Assembly: GCF_020382885.2 (NCBI RefSeq)
Contig: NC_058508.1
Span: forward strand, 9,461,917-9,525,916
Direction of reading: 5' to 3'
Length of the DNA stretch: 64,000 bases
From: Scatophagus argus
Taxonomy: Eukaryota; Chordata; Actinopteri; Scatophagidae
Below the pieces are notes generated by a model, which was given only the letters and a program-made list of their open reading frames with translations, was not told the origin of the DNA and searched no databases. Position numbers and translations under genes: made by a program. Below, piece by piece: positions 15,486-27,700 of the stretch (positions within the stretch are counted from its first letter, which is position 1; each line of letters begins with the position of its first letter).

Positions 15486-16685
15486 ATGAAAAATCATTTA
15501 AATAACAACAACGACTACCGCCCTGTTGCCCTCACCTCGGTGGTAATGAAGTGCTTCGAAAGACTGATAAAGGACTTCATCTGTACTTCATTGCCTGCTT
15601 CTTTTGACCCCCTCCAGTTCGCCTACCGCACGAACAGGAGCACCGATGACGCCATCAATCACGTCCTCCACTCCACCCTCACCCACCTGGACAGCGGTTT
15701 GGGGAACTATGTGCGGCTGCTGTTCATCGACTACAGCTCCGCATTCAACACCATAGTTCCCCACAGACTGGTCTCTAAGCTCAGGGACCTGGGGCTGAAC
15801 TCCTCACTCTGCTCCTGGGTCCAGAGCTTTTTGACTGACAGGTCACAGGTAGTGAGGATTGGTAAACACACCTCCAGCCCACGCACCCTTAACATCGGCA
15901 CCCCCCAAGGATGCGTCCTGAGTCCTCTGCTTTACTCCCTCTACACCCATGACTGTAAAGCCATGCACCCCTCCAACATCATTGTAAAGTTCGCCGACGA
16001 TACAGTGGTGGTAGGTCTGATCTCCAATAACAGGATAACGGCCTACACGGAGGAGGTGGATGCTCTGGCATCATGGTGTCGTATGAACAATCTAGACATG
16101 AACGTCCACAAAACCAAGGAGTTGATTGTGGACTTCAGGAGGGAGAAGCAGAGGAGCCATCATACCCCTCTCAGGATTTATGGGACACTGGTGGAGAGAG
16201 TCAGCAGCTACAGGTACCTCGGCGTCCACATCTCCGAGGACCTGACATGGACCACCCACATTTCCACCCTGGTGAAGAAGGCGAGGCAGCGGCTGTATTA
16301 CCTCAGGCGACTGAGGAAATTCAGGGTCTCCACAGCGCTGCAGAGAACCTTCTTCACTGCAGCCATACAGTCTGTGCTCACTGGGAGCATCACTGCCTGG
16401 TATGGCAACTGTACGGCACAGGACAGGAAAGCTCTGCACAGAGTGATCCGCTGTGCTGAACGGACTACCAAGACAGCATTGCCCTCCATGCAAGAGGTGT
16501 ATGCCAGCAGGTGTACATCCAGTGCACAGAGGATTTTAAAAGACACAAACCACCCGCACAATAGACTCTTTCAGTGGCTGCCATCGGGGAAACGTCTCCG
16601 GTCCCGCATGGCCAAAACTGAAAGACTGAGGAAGAGTTTCTTCCCCCAGGCCATCAGGACACTGAACTCTCTTTCCCCCACTTAA
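15486..16685 (+). pseudogene. LINE reverse transcriptase, N-terminally truncated but open
   Basis: An uninterrupted frame of 399 codons encodes the reverse-transcriptase core and C-terminal part of a LINE ORF2. Visible landmarks in order are YRPVALTS near residue 11, the motif-A region [26 protein letters not shown], the catalytic FADDTVVV, and the thumb-region [14 protein letters not shown]. In an active element this protein copies element RNA at a nicked target. The apurinic endonuclease that normally comes first is missing, so the copy cannot move on its own. The apparent start codon belongs to the junction and is probably not a real start. The absence of stops over 1.2 kb suggests a fairly recent insertion. 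A frame on the opposite strand (133 codons) is a shadow. Confidence 0.9.
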
Positions 16686-16943: not shown

Positions 16944-17404
16944 AAAAAAAATAAATAAGTGAAACAAAACAGTCATGACTGTTGTGCGACTTAGTAGGAG
17001 CAATTTGGTTATTGGCAAAGAGTCAATGATTATGGAAAATAATCATCAAAGTAAAATCAGTGTATGCTTAATACACATAAATATCGGGGCACCACCCTGT
17101 CACCAGGGACCAATAGCCAAATTAATTAATGGGAAAACAGTCTCTTAAAATTGTGAAGGATGATTCCGAGCACTGGCTGTCATGAATTCAGCTGGTATTA
17201 CAAGTACATACACAATAACCACAGACAACGACAGGTTAAACTATAACAGGATTTATTAAACAGCAACAACCATCCATAGATAAGTATCACTTTGTAATAA
17301 ACACTATTATAATCTAAGTTTTATCAACACACATTAACTATTAACTAAGATAATACAGGTACAGTAGCAAGAGTATATCTATATACAGGTGTGCATATAT
17401 ACAG

Positions 17405-17424
17405 GTGTGTGTGTGTGTGTGTGT
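17405..17424. repeat. (GT)n microsatellite inside the LTR
   Basis: About ten GT units, repeated at 23,242-23,261 in the partner LTR. Equal length in both copies supports a recent insertion, since such runs drift quickly. Confidence 0.85.
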
Positions 17425-17491
17425 ACGTATGGGTGTGTGTGAGAGAGAGATGATGACAACAGTATGGAGGCTAACAAGCTAGCCAGGTAGC

Positions 17492-17611
17492 GGCTAACAA
17501 GCTAGTGGCTAAAAACAAACAAAATGGCGGTTAGCAAGCTAGCCAGAGGGTGGCTAACAAGCTACAGGCTAAAAACAAACAAAATGGCGGTTAGCAAGAT
17601 GGCAGCTAACA
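17492..17611. repeat. 60-bp tandem duplication in the LTR
   Basis: Two adjacent 60-bp units start at 17,492 and 17,552. Each begins GGCTAACAAGCTA and each contains AAAACAAACAAAATGGCGG. They carry the first YY1-like motifs. The same pair occurs in the other LTR at 23,329-23,448. Confidence 0.8.
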
Positions 17612-17880
17612 AGATAGCAGCTAACAACAAGCTAGTGGCTGACTATAATTAAGATGGCGGATGGCCACATGAGGGGAGGAGCTACAACCAGAATGGCGAG
17701 TTGGGAAACTACAACCAAAATGGTGGAGGACTACATGAGGAGGGGTCAGCACACCAGGATGAACAACCACATAAAGGATGACTCAGCAAACAAAACTAGT
17801 CACACGCATGTGATGACTCAGCAAAACTCCAAATGACTACCGAGGAATACGCCGGCCGTATTATTCAGAGCCAAGATGGT
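17521..17880 (-). promoter_or_regulatory. Cluster of YY1-like motifs in the LTR
   Basis: Written on the plus strand, ATGGCGG-type cores occur at 17,521-17,530, 17,581-17,590, 17,596-17,605 (GGCAG variant) and 17,651-17,660 (AAGATGGCGG), with weaker forms near 17,691, 17,717 and 17,873. AAGATGGCGGC is the known YY1 consensus. The cluster repeats in the second LTR at +5,837. A role in element transcription is inferred by analogy with YY1 sites in other retroelements. Confidence 0.5.
17779..17823. promoter_or_regulatory. Paired NF-E2/AP-1-like sites
   Basis: Two copies of TGACTCAGCA at 17,779-17,788 and 17,814-17,823, 35 bp apart, match the Maf-recognition/NF-E2 core (TGCTGAGTCA on the other strand). 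Both recur in the other LTR. Confidence 0.5.
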
Positions 17881-18755
17881 GATAACCAACGTGATGTTGC
17901 TTATGTGGTCACAGAAGGGAACAATGGGCGGAAGCCTTTGAGCGCCACGTACCCCTTGGTTACGGTTCGTGATCGCGTGCTCGGACTTTCGCCTCACCGT
18001 TCAGATTAAAGAGTGTGAGGAAAGATAGAAATGAAAATACAAGAAAACACAACCCAATAAAATGATCCACTCTAATTCTTTAGAAACTCGCGTGTCACCA
18101 CACAATAGCGGAGTCAGTAAACCGGAGCTTATCTGCTCAGCTATTGGTCCTTTAACTGGTGACGCGCGGTCTCGCTGAAACGGCGGAAATGACCGACCGG
18201 AAAAAAAATCAATAAATGCAGCACTTAAAAGTTACAGAAAGCATGTGTAAACAACCCTACGTTACACTATCTCTGCCCAGACATAAGCCTCTTACGTTGC
18301 GTTGCTCCGATCATTCGGAGTTGAATTAATGATCCGCTTAAACGTTCGCAGCGTCGTCCTCGGCGGGATGCTGGCGGTCCGTTATTCAGAAGATGCGGAG
18401 TGTTGATCTCTCGGCGGCAGCGGAGAAAATCAGCGGTGAAAAAGTTAACAAACTTTGTTTCGTCCTTAACAAAGTCGGCGCGCGGCTCGTTAACGTGCGA
18501 TCAGCTGATTGTTCAGCGATCCACGTCGGATGAAGAAAAAAAGGAAAAGTTACCGAAAATTACAGCAGTCTGTTTCTCGGCCTGCGAGTTGCAGAACTGT
18601 GACCCGGGATCTAAAATGATGTTAATCAAAACGTTTGATTGTTGCTCCCTTTTGGCGGTTTGGACATTTGGAGAGCCTGGAGAAGCTCTCACTGTCACAG
18701 CACGCACGGGGAAAAAGCGCATGCTGATGGTCGCAGTGACCTTTTATTACCTGAG

Positions 18756-18763
18756 TGACGTCA
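18756..18763. promoter_or_regulatory. CRE palindrome in LTR
   Basis: TGACGTCA, the full CREB/ATF site, lies about 195 bp inside the LTR as read on the minus strand, a typical U3 enhancer position. A second copy is at 24,593-24,600. Confidence 0.5.
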
Positions 18764-18955
18764 CCTCGGACCCCCGTGGAGATGGCTGGCACGCAGCCAA
18801 TGTCCGTGCTGGTTCTGAGTTTAAACTCAGGAATTTATGACTAGTTGCACATCATGAGTGGGGGCTCTAACAGTTGGTCACTCTAACTCAGGCTTTATGG
18901 GTTACATGTAGGCCGCTCTATTGTTCTCCAGAGCGCATGGCCAGAGATCCCAACA

Positions 18956-18965
18956 TCCCCCCTTT
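18956..18965 (-). promoter_or_regulatory. Polypurine tract of the LTR element
   Basis: On the minus strand AAAGGGGGGA abuts the LTR start TGTTGGG. This is the position and composition expected of the plus-strand primer of an LTR retrotransposon, and it fixes the element's direction. Confidence 0.85.
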
Positions 18966-20229
18966 GGTCTGAAGAATGGGGTAGGGGCCACGGTCTTTAG
19001 AGCAACATTCTCTAAGGTCGAATGGTCCATGTGCGCTGAAGGTGGTCATCCTTCTGGCTTCCTTCCTGTTGGCTGATGAGCAGACACAGTGATCAACAGT
19101 TCAAAGTTCAGAGTTCATTGAGGCTTTAGCTCAGAGTTCATTGAGGCTTTAATTCAGAGTTCATTGAGGCTTTAATTCAGAGTTCATTGAGGCTTTAATG
19201 TCTGGACAGAGTTGAGGCACAGTCTGGGCAGATATGAATAATGAGCTAACTAACTCTACTATGATTATTTGGCATTTCAACAACACATTTAACACAATTT
19301 CAAAAGAGCATAGCTCAATGTAGGTACCCAAGGAAAGAAAGAGAGGAGAAAGAAGAGGAGGAGTATCAGTGAATTGGCTATGTATTCTAATGTAGCCAGC
19401 AGCTTAGTGGCTGTATCATGCCGGTCGTAGGCTAATGGGGCTTTGTGGTGACTGTATTCACCAACCATAGGTGGCCAATTCACTCTGCAAGGATCTCACT
19501 TTCCTCTGTTCTTGCAGACACGGTACCCTGGCATTTTTGCTAGGGTGAGTCAACTCTCAAACCACAGAGATCATCCACATCTCTAATCAATGGCTGCTGG
19601 GGCAGACTCAGTGGATATTCCTGGTTCAGGTACATGTGTTAAGGTTCAAAATACAATGAGGAGTCTCTCCTCATAATACACCAATATAAATGACATACGT
19701 GTAGTGTCTTGCCAAAACCAACATTCAAAACAGACTTCAGTTGCTCATTCTGCCAGTCTATAATAGTTATGGTTACAACAGAGCCTAGCTCTAATTTCTA
19801 GAGGTCTATGATAATTATAAGGAGGGATTTATTACCTTCAGTAAATTTAGGGATTGGTTCAATCTAACTGACTTGAAGATTAGAATATAAAAGGGTGACC
19901 CCCCTTTCCCTGAATTTGTGCTCGATTCAGAGGATGGTTGGTTAAAAATGACAGCAGGTAAGGCACCCTTGAATTTAACCTCTGGTGTCGTTGTTCATGG
20001 ATGTCCAATATGCAACCTGCTGAAGTGTCTGGAGAGTGGCTTTGTAACCATGGTGACCACCACAGGTGAGTCAGGGCGTGTGTTAGCATCAACCCCCCTT
20101 CCCTGTGGCTGGTCGGGTTAATCTATCCTATATAGCTGGTGATGCTATAAGAAAATCAAAAGGAAAAATAAAAAGAAGAAAAGCAATCAAAGGAACAGGG
20201 TTTCTGGTGTTAGGAGTATGTTTGAGTTA
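18966..20229 (-). other. Non-coding 3' interior of the LTR element where pol would be expected
   Basis: About 1.26 kb between the gag stop and the polypurine tract. The frames present are under 75 codons, and I see no protease DSG/DTG, no reverse-transcriptase YxDD and no integrase zinc finger on the minus strand. It is too short to have housed a full pol, so pol was deleted or replaced. It holds a four-unit 23-bp tandem repeat. Confidence 0.7.
19108..19199. repeat. 23-bp tandem repeat, four units
   Basis: Units start at 19,108, 19,131, 19,154 and 19,177. Each reads TCAGAGTTCATTGAGGCTTT plus three bases; the first ends AGC and the others AAT. The repeat lies in the non-coding 3' interior of the LTR element. 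Confidence 0.9.
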
Positions 20230-22188
20230 CTAGGCGGCCTGAGTGGTCGATCTGAACGTCTCAGCCACACACTTCCTTATAAGCTCTTTTAAGCTTTCCT
20301 CTTGGAAGTCTTCCTCTTTAAATGGAAGTGGGGCTTTGCCACCATACCTCCTACCCTGTTTGGAGTTGGGTTTAAACCTGCCCTTTCTGTCTGGCTGGGG
20401 AGTGTCTTTTGCCGGTGGGCTCAGGTTTCGTGACCAGTTAGGACTGTTGGTCCTCTGACTGGGGTGTCCACCCTGTGGGCGGAGTGATTGGTATGCCGGG
20501 GGACCTGGTCCCGCTTGCATCTGGGCACGAGGCATCTTGCTGCCTTCCAGTGCCACCTCTGCAGTGGCGGACGGCTGGATCTTCAGTACCCTGGCACTGC
20601 TGTCAGCTGTCCTACCTGGGCGTACTCGTGTTTCCCATGCCAGCTGCGCGTACCGCCTCATCTCCTGCATATTGAGGTTGTTAGTGCGGCAGTGCATGGT
20701 CACGTCGTAGCGTACGCTCTCGTGCAGGTTATGGAGGAAGAGAGATTTGAATGCATGTTCTTCCTCTAATCCAGGTGCATTACGCCCTTGGAAATATGCT
20801 GCTCTGAGCCGCCTGTAATACTCCCAGGGAGGCTCAAGTTTCTTCTGCATGACAGCAAAAGCATCAAGAGTGGCGGAAGCATGGTCTGTGTAGTGGGAGT
20901 ATTCTTCCCGCAGGGCTTGGCAGAGCGCTGAGTAATGGTCTCTGGTTCTTGGTGGGAGAGTCTCCATGAAGACACGGGCACTCCTGGAGGTGGTTTTCCA
21001 GATCAAGCGAAGTTTCTCCCGGGCAGATGCATGGGGAAGATCAAGGAGACAGCGATCTACCTCCCTCAAGTAGTCATCAATGGATGACTCCTGGTTCCTG
21101 GGGTCAAAGCTCTCTATGTCTCTTGCAAGAGATTCAAGCTGACGTATGCGCAGACCCTGTTGATAGTAGGTGCTGGCGTCGTCAGAGTCATCTGAGGGTT
21201 CTGGATTCCTCAAGTCCTGGTGGGAAAGACCATGACTACTCCTTCGTTGCAGAGAAGGGGTTTGGTCAAAGTGAGGGCGTGAGCGGCGCCCTAGATATGG
21301 CATGTCGGCCGGTGTGGGGCCAAAGTCCCTGTCGTCTCTCAAGGAGTATGGCTGATGTCCACCTTTCTCCAGGGAGGTTCTTCCTTTGGCAAAGTCAGGT
21401 ATGGAGCGCTGGAGAGCTGATGAAGTTGCACTTCTTGTGCATGAGGCATTCCCATGCCTATGGTGGACCAGTGGAGGAGTGTACTGGTCAAGAATGATCA
21501 TGTCGGGAATCTCAGTAGGGGCTGCTACCTCTCCACTAACTGTCCTCAGATCAGTGGGTGTGGCTCGAACTGTCTGTCGAGCACCCTCAAGCTCCTGACA
21601 TATGGTGGCTATCCGTGCTCGGGATGCCTGTCGTTCAGCCCGCAGCTTGTCCTCCATGGTGTCCGCCGTTCGCGTTTTAACCATCTCTTCTGGGACAGGG
21701 GCTGCATCTGGGTCAGAAACAATATCAGACGGACCAGGGATCAAGGCTGCTTTCACCTGATCCTCCGTCGTTTGGAGCTGCAAATTTAAATAAGGACAAT
21801 CCTGCTGGATGGTCTCATTTTCCTCCTTAACTTCAATCAGCTGATCCCTAAGGTCCTTAACCTCTTGCTGTAGGATCAAGTTTTTGTGTTGCTCAGCATG
21901 ATAGCTGGTCTGCAACACTGTAATCTGCTCCATATACTCTGCAGCTTGTAACTGGGCTTTACGGTGATAAAGCATTGTTACCTGACTGAGCATCTGAGAA
22001 ATGAGGGACAAGTGACAAGTGACCACTTCCTGTATTTTCTTATCACAGGTGCTAGCGTTGTAGCTGTTCAGGTCACTCATGCCATTAACTGCCAATTTCA
22101 CGAGGCCAGTGACTGTGGCCTGCAGGTTCAGGTCATCTGCCTCTTGGGAGCCTCTAGCTCCTGGGGTGTGGGAATCCCTACTGCTCAT
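20230..22188 (-). CDS. Gag-like protein of the LTR retrotransposon
   Basis: The frame stays open upstream to 22,257, but only through a GTG codon. The first ATG is at 22,188 with A at -3, giving 652 residues. An N-terminal third that should form a coiled coil (roughly residues 60-150, rich in Leu, Gln and Glu) is followed by a charged Arg/Ser/Pro linker. A capsid-like helical domain then spans about residues 350-540, including SIDDYLREVDRCLLDLP, YSALCQALREEY and RRLRAAYFQGRNAPGLEEE. Spacing and style fit Ty3/Gypsy-type retrotransposon Gag. The C-terminus is basic (RKGRFKPNSKQGRRYGG) and has no CCHC zinc knuckle, so RNA packaging may rely on the basic tail. It presumably assembles particles around element RNA. 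It is the only protein of the element. A domesticated gene is unlikely because both LTRs and the target duplication are intact. Confidence 0.85.
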   Translation of the reverse strand: MSSRDSHTPGARGSQEADDLNLQATVTGLVKLAVNGMSDLNSYNASTCDKKIQEVVTCHLSLISQMLSQVTMLYHRKAQLQAAEYMEQITVLQTSYHAEQHKNLILQQEVKDLRDQLIEVKEENETIQQDCPYLNLQLQTTEDQVKAALIPGPSDIVSDPDAAPVPEEMVKTRTADTMEDKLRAERQASRARIATICQELEGARQTVRATPTDLRTVSGEVAAPTEIPDMIILDQYTPPLVHHRHGNASCTRSATSSALQRSIPDFAKGRTSLEKGGHQPYSLRDDRDFGPTPADMPYLGRRSRPHFDQTPSLQRRSSHGLSHQDLRNPEPSDDSDDASTYYQQGLRIRQLESLARDIESFDPRNQESSIDDYLREVDRCLLDLPHASAREKLRLIWKTTSRSARVFMETLPPRTRDHYSALCQALREEYSHYTDHASATLDAFAVMQKKLEPPWEYYRRLRAAYFQGRNAPGLEEEHAFKSLFLHNLHESVRYDVTMHCRTNNLNMQEMRRYAQLAWETRVRPGRTADSSARVLKIQPSATAEVALEGSKMPRAQMQAGPGPPAYQSLRPQGGHPSQRTNSPNWSRNLSPPAKDTPQPDRKGRFKPNSKQGRRYGGKAPLPFKEEDFQEESLKELIRKCVAETFRSTTQAA

Positions 22189-22669
22189 TTTGTCTTTCCA
22201 CTGAACAGACAAAACAAAAATCACAAAACTGCTACGCTGAGCAAGTTTAAGTTGCACAGGTGGGCTTCAACCTGTGGCTTATAAAAACTACACAAATCAA
22301 CAATGTGCTGGGCTAACTATGGCTGCTAAGTAGTTGTAACTGAGGTTACACAGTAGCACTATACCTTATGCTAAAGGAGTTAGTGCACGTCAAAACAGGA
22401 CTCACAGATCCAGGAAAGCAAGAGAACACGGTCTGTGTTCTGCTACTTAACCTATGTAATCCACTATCCAATCTATGGCACCTCTTAGTGCAATCACAAC
22501 ACAACACAACCAATACTCTTAGTACCTGTAATTAATAGTTAACAATTAAAATGCAAGGGACGGCTTCTTCACTCTAATTCTGAGAAAAGAGGAGAATAAG
22601 GAGAATAATAAAACAACACAAAAGAAAAGAAATTCTCTAAACCGTCAGCAGCAGGTTACTGTGGTGATA

Positions 22670-22821
22670 CTGTAACACAGCTGGAATTAGACAAACTCAC
22701 CTGGGACCCCAATTATGTTGGTGGACCCATGGAAAAGTTTGGTTTTGCCTTTTTTGTTATTGTGTTTATACGGTAACACAGCTAGAATAAGACAGCCTCA
22801 CACGGGGCACCAATGATGTTG
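22670..22821 (-). repeat. Duplicated LTR-edge and leader segment (two 51-bp copies)
   Basis: Positions 22,670-22,720 and 22,771-22,821 align without gaps, 41 of 51 identical by my count. The right copy holds the primer site and the LTR edge; the left copy is a diverged second version in which most changes fall in the primer-site part. Confidence 0.75.
22796..22812 (-). promoter_or_regulatory. Primer binding site, tRNA-Met type
   Basis: On the minus strand TGGTGCCCCGTGTGAGG begins four bases after the LTR end. Its complement ends ACGGGGCACCA, matching over all 17 bases the 3' end of an elongator tRNA-Met (CAU) isodecoder as I remember it. The site is where minus-strand cDNA synthesis would start. 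The tRNA match is from memory and not searched. Confidence 0.75.
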
Positions 22822-24792
22822 TGCGACTTAGTAGGAGCAATTTGGTTATTGGCAAAGAGTCAATGATTATGGAAAATAATCATCAAAGTAAAATCAGTGT
22901 ATGCTTAATACACATAAATATCGGGGCACCACCCTGTCACCAGGGACCAATAGCCAAATTAATTAATGGGAAAACAGTCTCTTAAAATTGTGAAGGATGA
23001 TTCCGAGCACTGGCTGTCATGAATTCAGCTGGTATTACAAGTACATACACAATAACCACAGACAACGACAGGTTAAACTATAACAGGATTTATTAAACAG
23101 CAACAACCATCCATAGATAAGTATCACTTTGTAATAAACACTATTATAATCTAAGTTTTATCAACACACATTAACTATTAACTAAGATAATACAGGTACA
23201 GTAGCAAGAGTATATCTATATACAGGTGTGCATATATACAGGTGTGTGTGTGTGTGTGTGTACGTATGGGTGTGTGTGAGAGAGAGATGATGACAACAGT
23301 ATGGAGGCTAACAAGCTAGCCAGGTAGCGGCTAACAAGCTAGTGGCTAAAAACAAACAAAATGGCGGTTAGCAAGCTAGCCAGAGGGTGGCTAACAAGCT
23401 ACAGGCTAAAAACAAACAAAATGGCGGTTAGCAAGATGGCAGCTAACAAGATAGCAGCTAACAACAAGCTAGTGGCTGACTATAATTAAGATGGCGGATG
23501 GCCACATGAGGGGAGGAGCTACAACCAGAATGGCGAGTTGGGAAACTACAACCAAAATGGTGGAGGACTACATGAGGAGGGGTCAGCACACCAGGATGAA
23601 CAACCACATAAAGGATGACTCAGCAAACAAAACTAGTCACACGCATGTGATGACTCAGCAAAACTCCAAATGACTACCGAGGAATACGCCGGCCGTATTA
23701 TTCAGAGCCAAGATGGTGATAACCAACGTGATGTTGCTTATGTGGTCACAGAAGGGAACAATGGGCGGAAGCCTTTGAGCGCCACGTACCCCTTGGTTAC
23801 GGTTCGTGATCGCGTGCTCGGACTTTCGCCTCACCGTTCAGATTAAAGAGTGTGAGGAAAGATAGAAATGAAAATACAAGAAAACACAACCCAATAAAAT
23901 GATCCACTCTAATTCTTTAGAAACTCGCGTGTCACCACACAATAGCGGAGTCAGTAAACCGGAGCTTATCTGCTCAGCTATTGGTCCTTTAACTGGTGAC
24001 GCGCGGTCTCGCTGAAACGGCGGAAATGACCGACCGGAAAAAAAATCAATAAATGCAGCACTTAAAAGTTACAGAAAGCATGTGTAAACAACCCTACGTT
24101 ACACTATCTCTGCCCAGACATAAGCCTCTTACGTTGCGTTGCTCCGATCATTCGGAGTTGAATTAATGATCCGCTTAAACGTTCGCAGCGTCGTCCTCGG
24201 CGGGATGCTGGCGGTCCGTTATTCAGAAGATGCGGAGTGTTGATCTCTCGGCGGCAGCGGAGAAAATCAGCGGTGAAAAAGTTAACAAACTTTGTTTCGT
24301 CCTTAACAAAGTCGGCGCGCGGCTCGTTAACGTGCGATCAGCTGATTGTTCAGCGATCCACGTCGGATGAAGAAAAAAAGGAAAAGTTACCGAAAATTAC
24401 AGCAGTCTGTTTCTCGGCCTGCGAGTTGCAGAACTGTGACCCGGGATCTAAAATGATGTTAATCAAAACGTTTGATTGTTGCTCCCTTTTGGCGGTTTGG
24501 ACATTTGGAGAGCCTGGAGAAGCTCTCACTGTCACAGCACGCACGGGGAAAAAGCGCATGCTGATGGTCGCAGTGACCTTTTATTACCTGAGTGACGTCA
24601 CCTCGGACCCCCGTGGAGATGGCTGGCACGCAGCCAATGTCCGTGCTGGTTCTGAGTTTAAACTCAGGAATTTATGACTAGTTGCACATCATGAGTGGGG
24701 GCTCTAACAGTTGGTCACTCTAACTCAGGCTTTATGGGTTACATGTAGGCCGCTCTATTGTTCTCCAGAGCGCATGGCCAGAGATCCCAACA
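22817..24792 (-). repeat. Long terminal repeat (5' LTR of the minus-strand element)
   Basis: Same length as the other LTR and offset by exactly 5,837 bases: the frames at 17,654 and 18,400 recur at 23,491 and 24,237 with identical translations, so there is no indel between the copies over those parts. In element orientation this is the copy that should drive transcription, because gag lies to its left on the minus strand. The regulatory motifs listed for the other LTR are all present here at +5,837. Confidence 0.95.
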
Positions 24793-27700
24793 TGACACTT
24801 GACCGGACAGATGGAGTTGAGGTTGGGTGCAAGGTTGTGTGGGACAGGTAGCCTCAAAGCTTTGCCTTGTAGCAACACACTCACTGCCTCCTGCAGGCTG
24901 TTGCGCCAGAGGCAGAAACATCTCGATGTCGTCCCTCATCAACAGTGTTCCAGCTCTTGGTTCATCCAGCCTGGTATATGGTGCAGGAGCTCTCAGGGGA
25001 ACCAGCTGGCTGCAAACTGTCAAAACACAACATTCCACAGGAGATGCAGAGTGGCTTTGTAAAGTAAACATTTGGCTGTAGTTGGGCCAGCCACATAGAT
25101 GGGCAGACTGCTTTTTATGCAAGATATTGCCAGTAGGTGCACCTGCACATAAACAAATCTGGATGGAAGGAACATAAGTTTGATTAATTGCTGATGACTA
25201 TCATCCTATCAGTGCATCAGTCATTAGTATGGCATAAGAATGAGCTAAAAGTAGGACTTTGGAATTATGGACTAACAGTGGACTAACATGGGAGACAACT
25301 GTCCTTTTCCTGTTTCCAGCTGAGAGTTTTTTTAAGCGTGATCAATCTCTAACCTTAACAACATGTTTAGGTCAGGTCAGGAATCATTTCCATGTGTCTT
25401 TCTAAAGAGCAGAGACCAACAACGTGTTTTTCCATTTAATGGCTTGTTGGTTTCTGTAAACATGCTGCATAAAAATGCTATAAAGTGTAAAGGAAATAGA
25501 AAGTCAAAGTCTGAACTAAATCTGGCTGTAAACATGGCTACTATCCTACATGCAATTTCTCTTTTTTGATTTGTTAAATTAAACCATTTTCTCCCCATTT
25601 CTGCATCACTGTACGGTCTAGATTTGCTACAGAGTCTGAGCTGATTGCTTGTAATTAGGGCCTGTAGACATTTGCCTTAGAGCAGAAATACATTTCCCAT
25701 TTCATGTCTTTCAGTGGAGGGTTATATTATTTGTTAATATTTCCCATAGGCCTAAATAAAGCAGGAGCCTAGATTAGTTTTTACTTTATCTCCTTATTTT
25801 CTGCTCCTCTTCAGATGTGTAGTATATTAGAATGTCCTTGTGTAATTCAGAGCAACATCAGGACAGTCCATTATGTTCAGTTTGAAAAACATTATGAACA
25901 CTGAATCATTCTTGATTTCTTGCACTTGTTCTCACCTCAAGCATAAGCAGTATTGTTTGTGTTTGAACTGTACCATAACATTTATTTTGTGCTTTTAAAT
26001 TTAAAACTGCATGCAATGAGACTTCCTGTGTGTCTTCTCAATGCTACCCACGCACAGTTTTGTCAATAACAAGTCACCCAAGTACCAATGAAACGAATCT
26101 TGAACACCTCAAGGTTACAGTAAATTGATTGAAGTTAGTGTAGAACTGGGGCTTCTGTCTTCATGGATGGCGTGTATGATTGCAGTGGTTGAATCCATAC
26201 TTGCATCCATATTGCAGTGCAGCAGAGGCCCCAACACCCTGAACCTGTTTGGCAGTCTGAGAGAAATGGTGGAGCTCAGGGCAAAGACATCATTCACACC
26301 AATGCCCTGGACTTACCAACACCTGTGAGAGTGTCAGTGGCGTACTATCATGGCCATCATCAATCACTCTAATCAATGCAGCACACTCTTTACAGTCATG
26401 AAAATGCCAATACAGTAAATGCATGCTGGTGCTCTCCTCTGCCATGCTCGTCCAGCAGAATTTTAGAAGTTGGCTGCTTTTCGAAGGAGAAACCAAGCTA
26501 AAATATCAAAAAGACAAAATTATTGCAGGCCACAATGTCAAGTTTTAAGTCTTTATAACTTTTCTGTACCTAACACAGCCAAACCAGCCTCAAAACTCTG
26601 TTGCACCGCTGAGAGGGTGGCTCCCTGCAGGATTTCCATGTAACCAGTCATGAAGAACACAGATGAACTTAGCATGATATTCTTTGAACATTTGAAGTTG
26701 TTTCATTTGAGTTGTGTGCATGTGTGCGTGTGTGTGTGTGTGTGTGTCTTTAATCAATGATAATTCAGTGGAAATGAGGGGGTGAACATGTTATGGCTAA
26801 GCTGAGCTGTGCACAGCAAGGAGCTACAAAGGTAAGGCTATTTCCTGCAACGGGCTATTTGTAGAATCGCTTTTAAAAACTATCACAGCCATGTCTGACA
26901 CTGTTGGAAGACCACTGACACACTAATAGAGGATAAAGACCAATTGGTGCTGTCATACTGACCAGTGGCTATATACTATATACTATGTACTATACAGACC
27001 CAAGGAATGCTTATTAGGCCAATGCTAGGTTGCCAATCAACACAAACAATAGGAAACAGCCTGAGCAGAGTCTTTGCTCTTACTGATCGGTCAGAAAGGA
27101 CAGTTTGTGTCGAAATAACATGGTGGTTTCCCATCAAGGCCACCCTGGTATCAGCTCTGCAGAAGTTAAAATGCACCCTGTACTGCCTGAAAGCATTTGT
27201 CGCTTATAACATGTGGCACAAATGGAATCAACTGGGATAAATCTGCAGAGCACAGAACATGTGGGTTTTTCAAGCACCTTTTTCCTGTTAGTCTTCAGCA
27301 GCTCTTAGTGGTCATAGTTAAGGATTGCAAGTTGCTGCATGGCATTGCATACTTGCATACATCTGGAATTTGAATACAAATGAAACCCAAAATGAAACCC
27401 TCTCAGCATTAGAATGTTTGCACAGTCATGCACTTGTATCTCTGATATTGGCATTCTACACATATACTGTGCAGATTGGAGCAACTGTCCCCCAGAGCAT
27501 TCCCATAGCTAAAGGCTTTTTATTTGACAGGGAAACACATCCATGGCAGCTACAATATTTGTTATGAGATTAACCTACATTGAATCTGACATTCCCTTAT
27601 GTTGTGTATTTCTCCACAGATTGCCCAAACACTTGATCATATATAAATCATTAATACATGCTGTGCACTTAAAGATCTTAAAGATCATCTCACAGTTTTA

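What the first reader, a model, noticed from the sequence alone, without database searches (positions are those of the whole stretch)
16980..24792. Young gag-only LTR retrotransposon with intact ends and no pol
Both LTRs, a 4-bp TGAC duplication, PBS, PPT and a full 652-codon Gag-like frame are present, yet the rest of the interior (about 1.3 kb on one side, 0.6 kb on the other) has no protease, RT or integrase. A non-autonomous element that keeps its structural protein suggests selection on Gag in cis, or a family parasitising a pol-bearing partner. The missing zinc knuckle and the long coiled coil make the Gag unusual.
Basis: partly seen in the sequence, partly recalled or inferred. Interest (0 to 1): 0.75.

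Follow-up and report, generated by a model that had tools for sequence, protein, structure and literature searches.

The report
Gag-only retroelement family with helper
This is one young copy of a family of retrovirus-like elements in a fish-like genome that kept only the shell-protein gene, apparently borrowing its copying enzymes from a few complete relatives, and that has itself given rise to a smaller set of copies which lost even the core of that shell protein.

Summary
Window 16980-24792 (minus strand) is an LTR element with identical 1976-bp LTRs, a TGAC duplication, PBS, PPT and an intact 652-codon Gag, and no working pol. It is not a lone deletion. A 49-nt LTR/PBS word (up to 3 mismatches) finds 50 places in the genome: 34 gag-only copies (31 with intact Gag), 14 copies whose Gag lost 232 codons covering the presumed capsid region (13 still open), and 2 elements with gag, pol and env frames. 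The complete elements show a dual RNase H and, just under Pfam's cut-off, a Mononegavirales-type fusion Env: they look like lokiretroviruses. The window element carries collinear, decayed integrase and env remnants. LTRs of the two kinds are about 77% identical, but the U5 end, PBS and PPT are nearly the same, which points to use of the partner's enzymes in trans. Gag has no indel in the 31 intact copies while flanking interior DNA has many; the capsid region is under purifying selection. Closest known: zebrafish BHIKHARI (gag-only lokiretroviruses), so the gag-only state is a new member of a known kind. The capsid-less tier with a kept frame is less expected. Expression, assembly and transposition were not tested.

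The parts
16976..16979 (.). target site duplication TGAC, left copy
16980..18955 (-). 3' LTR (element orientation), 1976 bp, TGTTGG...ACAACA
18956..18965 (-). polypurine tract AAAGGGGGGA next to the 3' LTR; the complete partners have the same with one more A
18956..19356 (-). 3' untranslated region with similarity to the partner's (two blocks, 74% and 71%)
19400..19808 (-). decayed env remnant, 68% identity to partner env DNA
19845..20097 (-). decayed integrase remnant, 79% identity to partner integrase DNA
20230..22188 (-). Gag ORF, 652 codons plus TAG; intact in 31 of 34 full-length gag-only copies
20530..21201 (-). presumed capsid region of Gag (residues 330-553), purifying selection
   Evidence: fold not shown
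20521..21216 (-). segment (232 codons, about residues 325-556) absent from the capsid-less copies; borders uncertain by a CCAG microhomology
21745..22047 (-). predicted long helix, probable coiled coil, Gag residues 48-148
   Evidence: block means of pLDDT 56-81 from residue 61 to 150, lower before
22655..22720 (-). tandem, diverged second copy of the LTR-end/PBS stretch inside the leader; also in the gag-only and capsid-less copies whose leader was compared
22795..22812 (-). primer binding site TGGTGCCCCGTGTGAGGC (tRNA not identified)
22817..24792 (-). 5' LTR (element orientation), 1976 bp
24793..24796 (.). target site duplication TGAC, right copy

Best explanation
The element is a young member of a non-autonomous family derived from a lokiretrovirus-like ancestor by loss of protease, RT, RNase H, most of integrase and most of env. 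It keeps LTR, PBS, PPT and Gag. Most likely its own Gag makes or co-makes the particle, while reverse transcriptase and integrase come in trans from complete elements (two with open frames in this assembly), whose Gag-Pol joins mixed particles through the conserved capsid region and acts on shared LTR-end, PBS and PPT signals. A second deletion, once, removed the capsid region from one copy; that form spread too, so capsid can be supplied in trans, giving three tiers: complete, gag-only, capsid-less gag. Shown from sequence: anatomy, copy census, youth of the copies tested, shared signals, selection on the capsid region, kept reading frames. Inferred: trans use of the partner's enzymes, mixed particles, a partial cis advantage of intact Gag.
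For: Census by LTR/PBS word: 50 places, each assigned by position: 31 intact and 3 broken gag-only, 14 capsid-less, 2 complete. LTR pairs differ by 0-0.35% in the 9 gag-only copies compared (6 of 9 without a mismatch) and by 0-0.11% in 5 capsid-less ones (about 0.9 kb each); 4-bp TSD in 8 of 8 copies where both ends were read. Complete copies: LTRs 100% and 99.87% identical within the element, gag, pol and env-like frames open. Gag-only and complete LTRs are about 77% identical where they align, but the last 56 nt of the LTR plus the first 28 nt of the interior differ at one place of 84, and the PPT is kept. Gag: 0 gaps in 1959 nt over 31 copies, against 58 distinct gap intervals in the 1274 nt after it and 22 in the 628 nt before it. 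Capsid region omega 0.40, p 1e-8, within the family; 0.07-0.08 against the partner at dS 0.93-0.97 (3 gag-only copies against C8).
Against: No expression, particle or transposition data. Outside the capsid region omega within the family is not significantly below 1 (0.73-1.20). Capsid-less copies are about as young as the rest, which argues against a strict need for Gag in cis. The helper is inferred: its LTR differs by about 23%, a closer helper could be missing from this assembly, and the branch to the partner includes time before pol was lost. The 31 sequences used for the gap and rate counts are the intact ones; the 3 broken ones were left out, so 31 of 34 is the fairer figure. The 49-nt word favours young copies: an 89%-identical broken gag copy on C22 and older ones lack it. 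Structure predictions were poor.
Confidence: 0.72

Rival explanations
1. Youth alone: the copies are intact only because they inserted recently; nothing selects for Gag.
For: LTR pairs are nearly identical, so little decay after insertion is expected.
Against: Copies differ from each other by 2-4% on average; that divergence carries many indels outside gag and none in it in the 31 intact copies, no stop where about 25 are expected from the synonymous count, and 31 of 34 copies found by a word outside gag are intact. Capsid omega 0.40.
Confidence: 0.06
2. Host co-option: Gag is kept because the host needs the protein, as proposed for zebrafish Bik-1 and Bik-2.
For: Those Gags, from gag-only lokiretrovirus relatives, are reported as required for development (PMC10996621: abstract, sections 5 and 11 and search passages read).
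Against: Host selection would be expected to protect a few expressed loci rather than 31 dispersed, young, redundant copies. Not tested here.
Confidence: 0.12
3. RNA-level constraint: the 5' part of gag is kept as a packaging signal rather than for its protein.
For: Fourfold-site diversity is low in codons 61-120 and 181-360 (0.005-0.015) against 0.029-0.058 in codons 361-540; the capsid-less copies keep the leader and the first 324 or so codons.
Against: Codons 121-180 are not low (0.036). Frameshifting indels are absent from the whole frame, also in the six capsid-less copies read (0 per pair against 5.7 per pair in the post-gag DNA), which needs translation. Low diversity may come from recent shared ancestry by recombination, of which there are signs.
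Confidence: 0.1

Closest known systems
BHIKHARI families Bik-1 and Bik-2 (crestin) of zebrafish
   Same: LTR families with gag but neither pol nor env, related to lokiretroviruses, very young; Gag with N-terminal coiled coil, capsid domain and a Gly-rich C-terminus, 617 aa for Bik-1 against 652 aa here (PMC10996621: abstract, sections 5 and 11 and search passages read)
   Different: For Bik-1 the paper reports no pol-bearing copy in the reference genome; here two complete elements with open frames sit in the same assembly. The text gives eight full-length Gag copies among 25 proviral Bik-1 copies; here 31 of 34. A capsid-less tier is not mentioned in the parts read. Identity to Bik Gag could not be measured (no sequence held).
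Lokiretroviruses
   Same: The complete partner has a dual RNase H (tether plus RNase_H) and a Fusion_gly-type Env, the latter just under the Pfam cut-off
   Different: The window element itself lacks pol and env frames; no RT tree was built
TR-GAG elements of plants
   Same: LTRs, PBS, PPT and a single gag frame, dependence on a partner (category recalled; search listing seen, no paper read)
   Different: Plant elements (recalled); here a vertebrate retrovirus-like lineage
Chicken ENS-1 / ENS-3 (ERNI)
   Same: Non-autonomous gag-coding variant beside a pol-bearing one; coiled coil plus capsid Gag (search passages of PMC10996621)
   Different: Sister group of ERV-L according to those passages, not lokiretroviruses

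Membership tests
Lokiretrovirus (complete partner, C8 copy tested) | dual RNase H: degenerate tether plus new RNase H | tested here: met
   RT_RNaseH_2 E 4.5e-24 and RNase_H E 4.7e-23; definition from PMC9040795 (part 1 of 4 and search passages read)
Lokiretrovirus (complete partner, C8 copy tested) | Env similar to Mononegavirales fusion glycoproteins | tested here: met
   PF00523 Fusion_gly E 5.2e-7, 28.8 bits, 1 bit under the family cut-off of 29.8. A single-sequence search of the PDB did not find a viral fusion protein; its only match was Nup62, E 0.01
Lokiretrovirus (complete partner, C8 copy tested) | RT branches beside retroviruses, outside Ty3/Gypsy | tested here: inconclusive
   PDB matches of RT plus tether: five chains at 187-195 bits (foamy virus Pol as I recall; named Pr125Pol and protease/RT/RNase H), Ty3 at 152 (and a 155-bit chain I recall as Ty3), murine-type RT at 141-146 (recalled), HIV RT at 34 or less; no tree built
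Gag-only lokiretrovirus family (BHIKHARI-like) | LTRs, PBS, PPT and gag, no pol or env frame | tested here: met
Gag-only lokiretrovirus family (BHIKHARI-like) | Gag homologous to that of a lokiretrovirus-like complete element | tested here: met
   67% identity to the Gag of C8 and C19 over residues 1-646
BHIKHARI family proper | sequence relationship to Bik-1 to Bik-5 | not testable with these tools
   no zebrafish sequence is held
Retroviral Gag | capsid fold | tested here: inconclusive
   mean pLDDT 41.9 and 43.6, helical models; Retrotrans_gag sub-threshold
TR-GAG | terminal repeats with gag only, mobilised by a partner | tested here: inconclusive
   anatomy fits; definition recalled, mobilisation not tested

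The most novel reading that the evidence does not exclude
A three-tier parasite chain in one genome: complete lokiretrovirus, gag-only satellite, and a satellite of the satellite that codes for a working capsid-less Gag (coiled coil plus basic tail). The capsid-less protein would be functional, entering mixed particles to secure packaging of its own RNA or to modulate assembly.
Probability: 0.3. Interest if true: 0.75.

Novelty: new variant of a known kind. Interest (0 to 1): 0.56.

Why it matters
Gag-only lokiretrovirus elements are described in zebrafish, where no pol-bearing Bik-1 copy was found in the reference genome (PMC10996621). Here the presumed partner is present, with open frames and near-identical LTR pairs, so trans-mobilisation and the reason why Gag is kept become testable. 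The capsid-less tier is a natural deletion experiment that separates which parts of Gag are needed in cis.

Tried and rejected
Rejected: one-off deletion (the family has 34 gag-only and 14 capsid-less copies); spliced origin of the capsid-less form (by inspection the deleted piece does not start with GT under any placement of the CCAG microhomology); Gag broken in other copies (31 of 34 intact); gene conversion with the partner as the cause of capsid similarity (dS 0.69-1.18 in all five Gag parts compared).

Led nowhere: capsid fold (no fold search was made because the models are weak); PDB and Pfam searches of whole Gag and of the capsid region in the PDB; PHROGs; viral contigs (3 pattern stretches, none confirmed); ARAGORN on the window found no tRNA and the tRNA for the PBS was not identified; papers on truncated-gag elements (6 listed, none read). 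Whether capsid-less copies form one clade in gag codons 1-318 stayed open: the tree needs 6 changes, but the AU test gives p 0.106.

Rows dropped: for gag gap and rate counts the 31 intact copies were used, the 3 broken full-length ones were not; for capsid-less rates 6 of 14; LTR pairs for 9 of 34 gag-only and 5 of 14 capsid-less copies; partner comparison 3 of 31 gag-only copies against C8. The C18 tandem pair shares an LTR, is near-identical and is counted as two copies. Searches scored only part of their first-look candidates (68 of 130, 40 of 410, 147 of 393); one search scored 69 of 69.

Full report
OBSERVATION. It runs on the minus strand of window 16980-24792, with two 1976-bp LTRs without a mismatch, a 3861-bp interior, TGAC on both sides and a 652-codon Gag. 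The window lies in an assembly of 570.7 Mb in 48 contigs.

FAMILY. A search with the Gag protein found 31 full-length matches without a stop, at 95-100% identity (68 of 130 candidates scored). A search with the capsid region alone scored all 69 of its candidates and found the same 31, the two complete elements at 85%, and otherwise partial copies or copies broken in or outside this region. To avoid choosing copies by their Gag, I searched a 49-nt word across the 5' LTR end and PBS with up to 3 mismatches: 50 places, none for the reversed control. Assigned by position, they are 34 full-length gag-only copies, of which 31 are intact and 3 broken (C1:1.55 Mb, C19:21.16 Mb, C20:19.79 Mb); 14 capsid-less copies; and 2 complete elements; none is left over. 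Broken relatives that lack this word exist too, among them one at 89% on C22 and older ones, so the word favours young copies. Two of the 34 stand in tandem on C18 and share an LTR.

CAPSID-LESS TIER. Fourteen copies carry the same junction word (10 exact, 4 with one mismatch; a fifteenth hit with two mismatches on C19 is not near any gag match and is taken as chance). Thirteen of the 14 have an open frame across the junction, the one on C18 does not. In six copies read, the protein is 418-420 aa from the same ATG: about Gag residues 1-324, then the C-terminal tail from about residue 557; one copy has a further in-frame 6-nt loss. One origin follows from the shared borders. The five LTR pairs compared have 0 or 1 mismatch in about 0.9 kb. 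Frameshifting indels: none in the frame, 5.7 per pair in the about equally long post-gag DNA (six copies). Omega over their frame is about 1, so the frame is kept but amino-acid constraint is not shown. Three of the 6 carry a C-terminal variant (NLRPP) seen in none of the 31 intact full-length copies, so recent copying from full-length elements does not explain all of it.

PARTNER. C8:25.18 Mb and C19:17.69 Mb have LTRs of about 2.15-2.2 kb, 100% and 99.87% identical within each element. Each has an open gag frame, a 1736-codon pol frame and an env-like frame of more than 530 codons; in C8 gag and pol are in one frame, parted by TGA followed by CTA (a read-through context as I recall). Pfam, run on the C8 copy, names RVT_1, RT_RNaseH_2, RNase_H, Integrase_H2C2, rve and, just under its cut-off, Fusion_gly; the presumed protease stretch matched nothing. 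A PDB search with the env-like piece found no viral fusion protein. Dual RNase H and Mononegavirales-type Env are the features given for lokiretroviruses (PMC9040795). Close RT relatives are few: these 2, and 4 broken or partial ones at 87-95%; the next are at 37% or less.

ORIGIN OF THE GAG-ONLY FORM. After gag the window is collinear with the C8 partner: integrase remnant, env remnant, 3' untranslated region, PPT. So pol and most of env were deleted from a complete ancestor, and the leftovers have decayed. The leader holds an extra, diverged copy of the LTR-end/PBS stretch; the partners show only one.

SHARED SIGNALS. Over LTR positions 1-1900, identity to the C8 partner is 54-87% per 100 nt, but the last 56 nt of the LTR and the first 28 nt of the interior differ at one place. 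The PPT is the same apart from one added A before the partner's LTR. This is what one expects if the same primer, RT and integrase serve both.

SELECTION. Among 31 copies mean divergence is 2.0% in gag, 1.9% before it, 3.6% after it and 2.9% in the LTR part examined. Gag has no gap at all, the DNA after it 58 distinct gap intervals, that before it 22. Nei-Gojobori dN/dS is 0.42 for gag and 0.22 for the capsid region. A count that allows for transition bias gives 0.66 (p 3e-6) for gag, 0.40 (p 1e-8) for capsid, and 1.20, 1.13 and 0.73, none significant, for residues 1-150, 151-320 and 554-652; no stop against 25 expected. These p-values treat changes as independent, and there are signs of recombination among copies. 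Against the partner, with dS 0.69-1.18, omega is 0.07-0.08 in residues 361-553, 0.09-0.12 in 331-360 and 0.23-0.41 in the N-terminal and C-terminal parts (three gag-only copies). That branch includes time as a complete element. Because the LTR pairs tested are nearly identical, most differences between copies arose before insertion, in lineages that kept transposing; selection therefore acted through transposition cycles.

MECHANISM. The simplest reading is a satellite that supplies its own Gag and borrows Pol. The conserved capsid region would let its Gag and the partner's Gag-Pol assemble together (inferred). The capsid-less copies show that capsid can come in trans. Then why is it kept in 31 of 34 full-length copies? 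A cis advantage, in which Gag prefers the RNA it was made from, is my preferred answer; a host need for Gag is the main alternative.

KNOWN OR NEW. Gag-only lokiretrovirus families are described in zebrafish (PMC10996621). This is another such family, with a visible partner. A capsid-less tier did not come up in the search listings, nor in the parts of papers read; the library holds open-licence papers only.

Noticed in passing
window 15486-16685: 399-codon open frame with reverse-transcriptase motif FADD, probably the end of a non-LTR retrotransposon whose TTCTGA-type tail ends some 30 bp left of the LTR element (family recalled, not searched).
   Followed up: no
L041/L042, C18:18638000-18649500: Two gag-only copies in tandem sharing a middle LTR, near-identical to each other.
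   Followed up: partly
L032:1072-1077: Gag and pol of the complete element are in one frame, separated by TGA CTA, a possible read-through stop (context recalled).
   Followed up: no
window 17458-17665 and 23295-23502: The LTR holds imperfect 60-nt-spaced repeats around AACAAGCTAG and AAATGGCGG beside a GT run; the largest length difference to the partner LTR lies next to them (LTR 1201-1300).
   Followed up: no
L040, C9:725500-730500: Older relative with a gag frame running into pol remnants, and a piece of a gag-only-type LTR (93%) in opposite orientation.
   Followed up: partly
capsid-less copies: 11 of the 14 lie on the minus strand of their contigs; probably chance.
   Followed up: no
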